Source: Malus domestica
Lineage: Eukaryota > Streptophyta > Magnoliopsida > Rosales > Rosaceae
Direction of reading: 5' to 3'
Length of the DNA stretch: 64,000 nt
Assembly: GCF_042453785.1 (NCBI RefSeq)
Contig: NC_091668.1
Coordinates: 2,310,501-2,374,500, forward strand
In this document: positions 41,082 to 45,360 of the stretch, piece by piece
Position numbering within the stretch: the stretch's first letter is position 1
How the letters are laid out: every line of letters starts with the position of its first letter
Notes under the pieces: generated by a model
Seen by the model: the letters and a program-made list of their open reading frames with translations, nothing else
What the model was told of the DNA's origin: nothing
The model's database searches: none
Position numbers and translations under genes: made by a program

Positions 41082-41354
41082 GATGCACTTTTTCACTATA
41101 TTATTTCGGAGCAAATAGCAAATATCACCCTGAAAATAATTGCGTTCATAGAAATTGGGTATGTTAGGAAAATAATAGAGTTAGTTTTATGAGGGTTAGG
41201 ACGGTATTTACAGAATATTATTGACCCCTGTGTTCTAGGATGTCTTAGGAATAAAACTAACTCCATTATTTCCCTGACGTACCCAATTTCTATGAACGCA
41301 ACTATTCTCAAGTTGATATTTGCTCCCAGATGATATAGAGAAAAAGTGCATCAA

Positions 41355-41686
41355 ACATTATAAAAATAATGATACAAATGTAAAAAATGTCCAATTCCAA
41401 GACTCTTGAAACAGATGGAATAAATATAATAGAAGGCACGATAAACATAGCTTGAAAGAAGTTAAAAGATACCATCGCTCAGCTGAATACAATTTGTGAT
41501 TCAGCAACACCAACATCTTATGGTTGTTCACGCTGAGGATTCCTCTCCTCCGGAGGTTAGGCCGGCTGAGCATTCCCTTCATTCGAAGGCTGTTCTTCGG
41601 GTAAGTAAACAAAACATGATGAAAATCAAGAAAACAGTTCCGTAAACGTAAGGTAGAATAATAGCTAACTCGCCACGATGTTCCAT
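41355..41686 (-). pseudogene. Fragment of an unrecognised multi-membrane-segment gene (copy 1)
   Basis: The minus strand starts ATG at 41686 and opens with a hydrophobic N-terminus (ELAIILPYVYGTVFLIFIMF). It loses frame after about 25 codons, then gives hydrophobic pieces in other frames (LLTSFKLCLSCLLLYLF; LFQESWNWTFFTFVSLFL). It is broken by stops and frameshifts. I do not recognise the family. Confidence 0.55.
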
Positions 41687-42807
41687 TTCAGAAAAAGGAG
41701 AAAGAAAAGGAGAGAGAGCGAGTTTATAGAAAGCTAAGAGAGGGAGGGAGAGGAAGGAGATGGGGAGAGTGAGTATAGAGTGAGAGTGAGTGAGTGAGTA
41801 GGATGTTCCATTTTAGACAAATAAGAAAGGGAAACAGAAAATCAAAAAACATATGGCCACCGTTACGGCAATGGTCTTATACTGGTGTAAAACTTCCTCA
41901 ACCTAAAAATTATTACCACAAACTACTACATACATTTTTCGCAAAATGTTATTGTTCATGTGTTGTACAATAATCAGAAGACTGGTCATGCAAGTTGAAA
42001 TAACATATTTGGATACACTCTAAATTCACTTAACTTGTGGAAAGAGAAATTTGAACTTGAACGTTCCAAACTTCTTTGCATAAACAAATATCATAAGACC
42101 GGCGATTCAAGTCGAAACAACATATTTTTGCAGGCAATATTAACACACTTGAAAATGTATAATAAAGACTGAGTGATGTAGTTTTGATTACTAAATGTGG
42201 GTCTCTCTAATACATATAGACAAAATCTCTTTGTTATTATCTTTTTTCTTAAGAACAAAACCAAAATCCTGTGTCGATTTTATGCTGAGGTGTCGAAAAG
42301 GTACACCGCTCTTTCAACTACATGATCAAACCCCTTGATCTAAAAGTCTCAGCCATCCAACGGTCACAACCGTGGTCCTGCCTAACCAACTGATGGAAAC
42401 GCTCGGTTCTGTCCGCAATATAGCATTACTAATTCATTTAAACATTTTCGTTACATGGTTGAATGTATGAGTCACATACGATTGAATGTAAGTTTAATCG
42501 AAACAACATTTTTAAGTTCCGACCCGTAATTTTGAAATAGGATCGGAACACAACTTTTAAACTTAAATTTTTCAACACGTTATTCGGAAGTTCATATATT
42601 TTACAAGCTTTTGAGTATTCTCAAAAGTTTATTACATGTCATTTATTTGGTGGAATACTAGTATGATTATTCATTTTAGTTATGATGAATATAAAAAACA
42701 GTGAACAAACTATATCTAAAGCTAAAATACATAATTGATAACACATTTTATAATTGAGTGACAAATCAAAACATTTTGGTATCAGAATAAGTTAGGTGCA
42801 CACTTTG

Positions 42808-44373
42808 AAAAAAATTATGTCGGAAATTCCTAGTTATTAGAATTGCAAAATGCATTTTGATTTTCATTTCAACTTTTGAGAAAACATTAAGATTTGAAAT
42901 TTTTGCGTACGAATTCAAAAAATTTATCGTCGAAAATTAGAAACTCATTCTGACTTGGACCGCTAGTTGAATCTTATTATTTAAATCATTCAGATATCAA
43001 ATGAAATGAACCGTTGCCTACCCTGAAATAATAATTTCATCTTTATCACAAACCGGATGTCGTATCCACCATTAGCTATCTCATTTTTGCCATTCCCTTT
43101 ACGCTTTTGGATGCTTTTTTCTTCTTTATTATCAAGAAGCAAAGAGCAAATATCACCCCGAGAGTAGTGGCCATCATAGAAATTGGTTATGTCAGGGAAA
43201 TAATAGAGTTAGGTTTATGGGCTTTGGGACTATATATACAAAATATAATTGACCCCGAGTGCATCATATGCTTTTTCACCTTACTGAACTGTTCCTATTT
43301 CCTAATTTCTTTCGTCTTATTCCTGAGACATCCTAGAGCTCTATCCTTTCTAGATTTTGCCATAGGAATAAATGCTGTCATTTTAGTGTATTTCATAAAA
43401 CTAATTGACGGTGGAAGAAAACTCAAGGGTTACGAATACGGGTTGTTTAGTCTATCTATTACAACCTGCGTTTCTGTGCTTTTGTTCAAGAGCCATCAAG
43501 AAAGTGTAATAGCGGAGATCGAGAATCCGAACACTATATTTGCAATTTTAGGTATATCTATTTTCACACCTATTAGGCGATTCTTAGAATATCTATTTTC
43601 ACACCTAATAGGTGTGAAAATAGATATACCTAAAATTGCAAATATAGTGTTCGGATTCTCGATCCCCGCTATTACACTTTCTTGATGGCTCTTGAACAAA
43701 AGCACAGAAACGCAGGTTGTAATAGAGAGACTAAACAACCCGTATTCGTAACCCTTGAGTTTTCTTCCACCGTCAATTAGTTTTATGAAATACACTAAAA
43801 TGATAGAATTTATTCCTATGGCAAAATCTAGAAAGGATAGAGCTCTAGGATGTCTCAGGAATAAGACGAAAGAAATTAGGAAATAAGAACAGTTCTGTAG
43901 GGTGAAAAGTCATATGATGCACTCGAGGTCAATTATATTTTGTATATATAGTCCCAAAGCCCATAAACCTAACTCTATTATTTCCCTGACATAACCAATT
44001 TCTATGACGGCCACTACTCTCGGGGTGATATTTGCTCTTTGCTTCTTAATAATAAAGAGGAAAAAAGCATCTAAAAGCGTAAAGGGAATGGCAACAACGA
44101 GATAGCTAATGGTGGATACGACATCCAGTTTGTGATAAAGATGAAATTATTATTTCAGGGTAGGCAAGGGTTCATCTCATTTGATAACTGAATGATTTAA
44201 ATAATAAGATTCAACTAGCGGTCCAAGTCGGAATGGGTTTCTAATTTTCGACGATAAATTTTTTGAATTCGTACGCAAAAATTTCAAATCTTAATGTTTT
44301 CTCAAAAGTTGAAATAAAAATCAGAATGCATTTTGCAATTCTAATAACTAGGAATTTCCGACATAATTTTTTT
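42808..44373. repeat. Inner palindrome: two 769-bp arms, 28-bp spacer
   Basis: Arm 1 is 42808-43576, the spacer 43577-43604 and arm 2 43605-44373. The arms are of identical length and differ only by scattered substitutions. The spacer repeats part of the arm end (gaatatctattttcacac). Such near-identity implies a recent inverted duplication or gene conversion between the arms. Confidence 0.95.
43107..43577 (+). pseudogene. Longest open piece of the multi-membrane-segment family
   Basis: An open frame of about 157 codons in arm 1 begins MDAFFFFIIKKQRANIT. It contains at least four hydrophobic stretches (ECIICFFTLLNCSYFLISFV; LDFAIGINAVILVYFIKLI; FSLSITTCVSVLLF; NTIFAILGISIF) with charged links such as DGGRKLKGYEYG and FKSHQES. 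The frame runs on through the palindrome centre for 35 artefactual codons. The mirrored copy lies in arm 2 on the minus strand. Its start and end relative to the real gene are unknown. It could be an exon of a polytopic membrane protein. Confidence 0.45.
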
Positions 44374-44431
44374 GATTTTCATCGATATCTCTCTTAGCTT
44401 TCTGTAAACTCAATATCTCTCCTTTTCTGAA

Positions 44432-44780
44432 ATGGAACATCGTGGCGAGTTAGCTATTATTCTACCTTACGTTTATGGAATTGTTTTCTTCATTTTCATC
44501 ATGTTTTGTTTACTTAACGGAAGGATAGCCTCCGAAGGAGGGGGGGAATGCTCAGCCGGCCTAACCTCCGGAGGAGGGGAATCCTCAGCATAAACAACCA
44601 TAAGATGTTGGCGTCGGTGTTGCTGAATCACAAATCGTATTCAGCTGAGCGATGGTATCTTTTAACTTCTTTCAAGCTATGTTTATCGTGTCTTCTATTA
44701 TATTTATTCAATCTGTTTCAAGAGTCTTGGAATTGGACTTTTTTTTTACATTTTTATCATTACTTTTATAATGTTTGATG
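44432..44780 (+). pseudogene. Fragment of the multi-membrane-segment gene (copy 2, mirror of copy 1)
   Basis: ATG at 44432 begins MEHRGELAIILPYVYGIVFF and stays open for about 53 codons through a Gly/Glu/Ser linker (GGGECSAGLTSGGGESSA), then stops. Hydrophobic text continues in another frame (LLTSFKLCLSCLLLYLFN). It is the reverse complement of copy 1. Confidence 0.5.
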
Positions 44781-45360
44781 CACTTTTTCTCTATATTATC
44801 TGGGAGCAAATAGCAAATATCACATCGAGAATAGTTGCGTTCATAGAAATTGGGTACGTCAGGGAAATAATGGAGTTAGTTTTATGAAGTTAGTTTTATT
44901 CCTGAGACATCCTAGAACACTGGGGTCAATAATATTCTGTAAATACCGTCCTAAACCTCATAAAACTAACTCTATTATTTTCCTAACATACTCAATTTCT
45001 CTGAACGCAATTATTTTCAGGGTGATATTTGCTATTTGCTCCGAAATAATATAGAGAAAAAGTGCATCCAACATCATAAAGGGAATGATACAAATGTAAA
45101 AGGTGTCCAATTTCAAGACTATTGAGATAGGTAGAATAAATATAATAGAGGGCACGAACATGGCTTGAAAGAAGTTAAAAGATAACATTCCTAAGATGAA
45201 TACGATTTCTGGTTTAGCACCACCGAGACCGACAACTTGTGTTTTTGTTCATGCTGAGGATTCCCCTCCGAGGTTGGGCCGGCGGGGCATTTCCGTCCTC
45301 CGGAGGTTGTCCTTAGGTTAAGTAAACAAAACAGGCATACAGAATGAAAATCATGCTTGG

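What the first reader, a model, noticed from the sequence alone, without database searches (positions are those of the whole stretch)
41082..45070. Nested 4-kb palindrome built from a membrane-protein gene family: candidate hairpin small-RNA locus
Seen: two multi-part arms in mirror order, inner arms 769 bp each, outer arms about 0.66-0.69 kb, with intact and partial copies of the same gene text outside the palindrome. Known: in plants, inverted duplications of gene segments give long hairpin RNAs cut by DCL enzymes, and are the proposed seed of new MIR genes. Inference: a transcript across 43.1-44.1 kb would silence the family members at 45-46 kb and elsewhere in the genome.
Basis: partly seen in the sequence, partly recalled or inferred. 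Interest (0 to 1): 0.85.

Follow-up and report, generated by a model that had tools for sequence, protein, structure and literature searches.

The report
Young palindrome of dead gene copies
A real four-kilobase palindrome in a plant chromosome, made by an inverted duplication of broken membrane-protein gene copies, could give a hairpin RNA if it were read, but nothing found in its sequence shows that it is used.

Summary
The palindrome is real. Inner arms 42808-43577 / 43604-44373 match at 746 of 770 positions, spacer 26 nt; outer arms at 618 of 651 aligned positions. "Nested" is better read as ONE inverted duplication whose right arm lost about 1.06 kb. No copy in the window is an intact gene.

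The arms belong to a Pfam-less, hydrophobic family found here on C8, C17 and C15. With a frameshifted, non-palindromic C17 copy they form a clade (100/100). On C17 (22.07-22.57 Mb) an array carries 12 type-A and at least 11 type-B hairpins of the family, probably formed independently of the window's.

Tests for hairpin function were negative or inconclusive: inner arms look neutral (5 synonymous, 11 replacement changes) and show no G-U excess (8:9); in 7 of 12 A units hairpins vary as much as flanks (40/1356 against 75/2103, p=0.33). Of 750 inner-arm 21-mers, 1 matches the 45-46 kb copy exactly, 0 the intact C8 gene, 67 the dead C17 copy.

Verdict: ordinary origin, hairpin competence clear, small-RNA role unproven. 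Small-RNA mapping would decide.

The parts
41079..41743 (-). Outer left arm X: gene 5' part (to about aa 160) on minus, ending in a small tail-to-tail turn at about 41247
   Evidence: 618/651 identical to the right outer arm; tblastn aa 72-131 and 138-160 on minus, 121-178 on plus
41744..42807 (.). Upstream flank kept only on the left; the mirror stretch is missing from the right arm (about 1.06 kb)
   Evidence: homologous to 46444-46489, 46656-46837 and 46843-46917 (D13, D3, D9); right arm passes from 44373 to 44389 directly
41960..42150 (.). 190-bp element U, 85-91% alike at 39 other places listed, all in the C8 2.35-2.51 Mb and C17 22.06-22.57 Mb clusters
   Evidence: 40 of 51 candidates scored, so the list is a lower bound
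42808..43577 (+). Inner left arm: flank S (to about 43085) fused to gene 3' part V, about aa 112-284
   Evidence: fusion at an AGCTAT microhomology seen
43578..43603 (.). 26-nt spacer, centre of the palindrome
43604..44373 (-). Inner right arm: V' (one TGA in the frame) and flank S'
44389..44891 (+). Outer right arm X': gene 5' part, about aa 12-159; the arm's last part, to 45071, lies in copy 4
44904..46411 (-). Copy 4: gene text with its start region near 46141, cut by a foreign fragment, ending tail-to-tail against X' (44489-45348 is itself a 79% palindrome)
45347..45822 (+). Fragment of a KIB1-4 beta-propeller (F-box) gene inside copy 4
   Evidence: 84% to L029 3451-3947; the L029 frame 3592-4164 hits PF03478 at 1.9e-11

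Best explanation
A young inverted duplication of already incomplete gene copies, in a fast-rearranging cluster of F-box (KIB1-4) genes and a membrane-protein family. Order of events, inferred: a gene copy lost its 5' coding part by a deletion at a 6-nt repeat and became V; a template switch during replication or repair copied the block X-flank-V back on itself, with its turn inside the gene near codon 284; the right arm then lost about 1.06 kb. The locus has since drifted. If it is transcribed it will form a near-perfect duplex and be diced, so siRNAs may exist, but as a by-product; their best match is the dead C17 copy, not the copy next door.
For: One event: inner and outer arms have similar identity (96.9% and 94.9%). 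Apart from the C17 hairpins: both window arms group with a non-palindromic C17 copy, support 100/100, which still has the gene tail beyond the turn. Formed after that copy split off: against the outgroup majority, 12 sites are derived and shared by both window arms, 3 shared by the left arm and L029, 1 by the right arm and L029. Neutral afterwards: 5 synonymous and 11 replacement changes in 174 codons, near the site ratio 120:402, and a stop in one arm; against L029 dN/dS is 0.25 and 0.43 for two parts. No pairing bias: 8 G-U against 9 A-C. Fusion microhomology AGCTAT. Cluster prone to such events: many palindromes in C17 units.
Against: The turn lies at nearly the same codon (about 273-289) in the window and in C17 types A and B although the tree sets the window apart; drift alone does not explain that. 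The order of the two window arms and L029 is not settled by trees: one puts L029 with the left arm (85/82), the other pairs the arms weakly (71/41). The palindromes with gene text whose polarity I read (three in the window, types A and B, one in L042) are tail-to-tail, which gives sense-antisense RNA. Flank S sits directly before a type A hairpin gene too (L030), so a promoter may have been kept.
Confidence: 0.62

Rival explanations
1. A working hairpin-RNA locus: transcription from S gives a long hairpin, DCL enzymes cut it, and the siRNAs silence family members in cis and on C17.
For: Near-perfect duplex (-790.8 kcal/mol); S flank kept before V as in the type A unit L030, with the edge of S found beside 11 of the 12 A copies; at least 23 related hairpins on C17; 67 of 750 21-mers exact to the C17 copy L029. 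Reported for ARR17 fragments in poplar (PMC9636151, passages).
Against: No expression data. No arm-arm pairing bias in the inner arms (8:9), neutral arms; C17 A hairpins as variable as flanks in 7 of 12 units, 40/1356 against 75/2103, p=0.33. Open paralogue L027 has 0 exact 21-mers; copy 4 has 1 of 750.
Confidence: 0.25
2. Still a membrane-protein gene, the palindrome being incidental.
For: Left arm frame open for 216 aa stop to stop.
Against: First ~112 codons missing, frame runs through the spacer into the antisense arm, right arm has a TGA.
Confidence: 0.04
3. A fold-back transposon.
For: Inverted symmetry and relatives elsewhere.
Against: Relatives found only in two clusters plus one distant C15 gene; the inner arm ends are deletion breakpoints, homology continuing leftwards past 42808 (D8, D9), not element ends. 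Target-site duplications were not searched for systematically.
Confidence: 0.03
4. An assembly artefact (read folded back or haplotypes joined head to head).
For: Palindromes are a known failure of long-read assembly (recalled).
Against: 24 mismatches spread over 42857-43516, a one-sided 1.06-kb loss and 46 gap columns in the outer arms are not what a folded read gives; palindromes of the same family recur in 12 type A copies on C17. Raw reads were not available.
Confidence: 0.05

Closest known systems
Inverted pseudogene pairs giving siRNAs in rice (PMC2708354; passages seen)
   Same: Two adjacent inverted pseudogene pieces whose transcript can fold; the parent gene lies elsewhere
   Different: There the example had a 185-nt duplex with a 1,283-nt loop and small RNAs were mapped; here arms are 770 nt with a 26-nt spacer and no small-RNA data
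ARR17 partial duplicates, poplar sex region (PMC9636151; passages seen)
   Same: Inverted partial copies of a gene, relaxed selection, hairpin structure
   Different: There 24-nt siRNAs and a sex-linked target were reported; here only a dead copy is strongly matched
Fly hpRNA clusters such as hp-tHMG, 13 local inverted repeats (PMC10317233; passages seen)
   Same: The C17 array: many hairpin copies of one gene family in tandem units
   Different: No Dicer dependence, transcript or target shown; plant, not fly; type A hairpins not more conserved than flanks
Inverted-duplication origin of MIR genes (Allen et al. 2004, seen only in a reference list; content recalled)
   Same: A gene segment duplicated tail to tail
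   Different: No Rfam match; mismatches spread over the arm, no short kept stem noticed

Membership tests
Endogenous hairpin-RNA (IR-siRNA) locus | Long inverted repeat able to form an extended duplex | tested here: met
   746/770 identical, 26-nt spacer; fold -790.8 vs -206.9 kcal/mol
Endogenous hairpin-RNA (IR-siRNA) locus | Transcript crossing the spacer | not testable with these tools
   no RNA reads held
Endogenous hairpin-RNA (IR-siRNA) locus | 21/22/24-nt RNAs from both arms, DCL-dependent | not testable with these tools
   no small-RNA libraries held
Endogenous hairpin-RNA (IR-siRNA) locus | Sequence match to an intact target | tested here: inconclusive
   21-mers of inner arm, n=750, exact and <=2 mismatches: open L027 0 and 8; frameshifted L029 67 and 346; C15 gene 0 and 0
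Endogenous hairpin-RNA (IR-siRNA) locus | Selection on pairing or on the arms (supporting, not defining) | tested here: not met
   inner arms 8 G-U: 9 A-C; 5 S and 11 N changes; C17 A hairpins 40/1356 vs flanks 75/2103 in 7 of 12 units. Other hairpins: skews without a consistent sign
Known Rfam RNA family / MIR gene | Match at gathering score | tested here: not met
   window has 2 matches, a tRNA and snoZ103, neither here
Fold-back transposon | Dispersed copies with the same ends | tested here: not met
   C8 and C17 clusters and one distant C15 gene
Known protein family | Pfam match | tested here: not met
   no match for L027 and C15 proteins at E<=10 nor for 4 of 5 window frames at E<=1; the fifth has one hit far under its cut-off (12.7 of 25 bits)

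The most novel reading that the evidence does not exclude
The C17 array and the C8 palindrome are a plant counterpart of fly hpRNA clusters: one young membrane-protein family in conflict with its genome has repeatedly thrown off tail-to-tail hairpins with their turn at the same codons, and two types were then amplified in tandem units as a silencing arsenal against the remaining intact genes.
Probability: 0.1. Interest if true: 0.75.

Novelty: new member of a known kind. Interest (0 to 1): 0.38.

Why it matters
If the hairpins are expressed, this would be a natural series (one gene family, a young hairpin and two amplified types) in which the birth of a silencing locus could be followed in a plant genome. 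If they are not, it is a clean example of how gene clusters produce long palindromes by inverted duplication with no function, a caution for calling hairpin loci from sequence alone.

Tried and rejected
Rejected: nested origin in two steps (the one-sided flank is ancestral); fold-back transposon; link to the self-incompatibility locus (T2 ribonuclease matches on C17 lie at 31.45 Mb, not 22 Mb; that the S-RNase is of this family and on this chromosome is recalled); common origin of the window palindrome with the C17 ones (less simple on the trees, not excluded). Not decisive: G-U against A-C counts, plus strand. Inner arms 8:9, outer arms 11:7, small palindrome h1 7:6, the palindrome 44489-45348 29:10 (p printed as 0.00), C17 type A 19:37, 20:33, 18:36 in three of 12 copies (p 0.02, 0.10, 0.02), type B 9:9, 8:11, 8:11 in three of 11. 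The two skews favour the strand opposite to the gene-sense transcript of the copy that carries the upstream flank, they may be older than the hairpins, and several tests were made; I take no support from them. An attempt to compare all 12 A units was spoiled by unrelated flanks, so one search uses 7 of 12. No useful relative: Pfam, PDB sequences (one chance hit, E 0.47). A paper search with the words inverted repeat, hairpin, siRNA, apple, Malus gave 28 papers, 15 listed; by titles and abstract openings none of the 15 treats an endogenous hairpin locus of this kind. Further listings. No protein structure was predicted.

Dropped rows: L037 was taken out of the arm tree as a palindrome (the palindrome found there misses the gene match) and kept as a single copy; L036B_R has a long branch (0.49); the bootstrap had not settled. 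One search used one copy each of types A and B. Partial C17 matches (for example 22065347, 22182121, 22453980, 22255259) were not fetched.

Full report
WHERE IT IS. The window is G000:C8:2310501-2374500 of a 651,096,769-base genome in 19 contigs. Size and contig number suggest an apple-like (Malus) genome; this is recalled and was not tested.

THE OBSERVATION. The inner arms 42808-43577 and 43604-44373 are 770 nt each, identical at 746 positions without gaps, 26 nt apart. The 24 mismatches are spread from 42857 to 43516. The outer arms 41079-41743 and 44389-45071 agree at 618 of 651 aligned positions with 46 gap columns. In the whole window 10 ungapped inverted pairs reach 120 nt, and 8 of them belong to this block. 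As RNA, 43120-44070 folds at -790.8 kcal/mol against -206.9 for 20 shuffles.

ONE PALINDROME, NOT TWO. The left-only stretch 41744-42807 matches pieces of the flank beside copy 4 at 46.4-46.9 kb (families D3, D9 and D13), and the homology runs on past 42808 (D8). It is therefore the old upstream flank, and the right arm has lost its mirror. Inner and outer identity are close (96.9% and 94.9%), which fits a single inverted duplication: X (gene 5' part, minus) - flank U and S - V (gene 3' part, plus) | V' - S' - X'. That it was one event is inference.

THE GENE. The open C8 copy is one uninterrupted frame with a hydrophobic start, a repetitive hydrophilic linker and further hydrophobic stretches. 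A simple hydropathy scan gives 5 windows in the C8 protein and 8 in the C15 protein, two of them overlapping in each. It has no Pfam match. A protein search of the whole genome (102 of 102 candidates scored) gave 94 matches, all on C8 and C17 apart from one on C15. Four of the 94 have no stop over the match: C8:2478925 (319 aa stop to stop, 63% identical), C15:1945346 (392 aa, 31%), the window's own left arm, which lacks the first ~112 codons, and a 42-residue piece on C17. The closest relative, C17:22323654 (L029), is frameshifted and not palindromic there. Copy 4 in the window (minus, start region near 46141) is interrupted by a KIB1-4 fragment (45347-45822) and meets X' tail to tail at about 44895.

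HOW V AROSE. V has flank S directly before it. S is 84.6% alike to the flank before a type A hairpin gene of C17 (win 42746-43089 against L030 2365-2717); the edge of S is found beside 11 of the 12 A copies. In V the join is S ...TTAGCTAT / gene ...CAGCTATCTC..., sharing AGCTAT: a deletion from S to about codon 112. The join is seen in the sequence; the mechanism is inference.

THE C17 HAIRPINS. At C17:22.07-22.57 Mb, units roughly 20-30 kb apart carry two types. Type A: 12 of 12 fetched copies are palindromic; arms are 636-678 nt in 11 and 486 nt in one, identity 77-84% in the self-alignment. Type B: of 12 fetched, 10 have arms of 266-273 nt, one of 129 nt, and one has no palindrome at the gene match. 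Several partial matches were not fetched. The turn lies at codons of about 273-289 in A, B and the window. The left arms of the 12 A copies form one group and the right arms another (100/99 and 100/100); in the three A copies printed, same-side arms are 97.7-100% alike and the two sides of one unit 86-90%. The array thus grew from a unit that already held the hairpins. The window arms (95% alike in the 300 nt nearest the centre) group with L029, support 100/100, and are 69-72% alike to the A and B arms printed. L029 keeps the gene tail beyond the turn, so the simplest reading is a separate, later origin of the window palindrome. Whether L029 split off before the palindrome formed is not settled by trees: one search places it with the left arm (85/82), with a longer stretch, pairs the arms (71/41). 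Site by site, against an outgroup of L027 and one A and one B copy, 12 sites are derived and shared by both arms, 3 by the left arm and L029, 1 by the right arm and L029, which favours the later origin. A shared origin with loss in L029 is not excluded.

IS IT USED? (1) Coding: dN/dS against L029 is 0.25 and 0.43 for two parts of the left arm; between the two arms there are 5 synonymous and 11 replacement changes over 120 and 402 sites, as expected without constraint, and one stop. (2) Pairing: 8 G-U against 9 A-C in the inner arms; other hairpins show no consistent sign (full counts under tried and rejected). (3) Conservation: in 7 of 12 type A units with alignable flanks, 40 of 1356 hairpin columns and 75 of 2103 flank columns vary (p=0.33); the 60-nt spacer has none, too few to judge. 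(4) Targets: of 750 21-mers of the inner left arm, exact / up to 2 mismatches: copy 4, 1 / 25; L027, 0 / 8; L029, 67 / 346; C15, 0 / 0; a shuffled L027 0 / 0. Of 629 21-mers of one type A arm, L027 has 3 / 74; of 241 of one type B arm, 0 / 34. So the window hairpin fits the dead C17 copy best, and these C17 arms fit the open C8 gene better than the window hairpin does.

COMPARISON. Plants do make siRNAs from inverted gene pieces: rice pseudogene pairs (PMC2708354, passages) and poplar ARR17 fragments (PMC9636151, passages). The C17 array recalls the fly hp-tHMG cluster with 13 local inverted repeats (PMC10317233, passages). The window locus shares the anatomy; the features that define such loci, transcript and small RNAs, could not be tested.

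CONCLUSION. The palindrome is real, young and derived by inverted duplication of dead gene copies. It works like a hairpin gene only in the sense that its RNA would fold. The claim of silencing stays open, with the neighbour at 45-46 kb an unlikely target. What deserves a look is the C17 array and the repeated placing of the turn at nearly the same codons.

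Noticed in passing
G000:C17:22.065-22.567 Mb (L030-L042 and others): Array of units roughly 20-30 kb apart holding two hairpin types of the same gene family, with KIB1-4 fragments among them; at least one A and two B copies are in the opposite orientation.
   Followed up: partly
window 41960-42150: 190-bp element 85-91% alike at 39 other listed places, all in the C8 and C17 clusters, and better kept than the gene text beside it (about 70% between window and C17 hairpins); function unknown.
   Followed up: partly
window 40009-40938: 95.5% identical over 936 columns to a C17 unit (L031 3216-2281), far more alike than the neighbouring gene text: recent transfer or conversion between chromosomes?
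   Followed up: no
window 40645-41081: Tandem repeat (periods about 198, 130, 126 and 71 nt) ending within 3 nt of the left edge of the palindrome.
   Followed up: no
L031 2030-2281 and equivalents: Small palindrome that seems to hold the gene's 5' part, sense and antisense; one search lists similar sense-antisense neighbours in many C17 units.
   Followed up: partly
window 6205-6276 (-) and 29496-29598 (+): tRNA gene and snoZ103 snoRNA by Rfam.
   Followed up: no
L027 5300-5970: GA-rich repeat, by eye about 149 nt apart, directly upstream of the open C8 paralogue's start.
   Followed up: no
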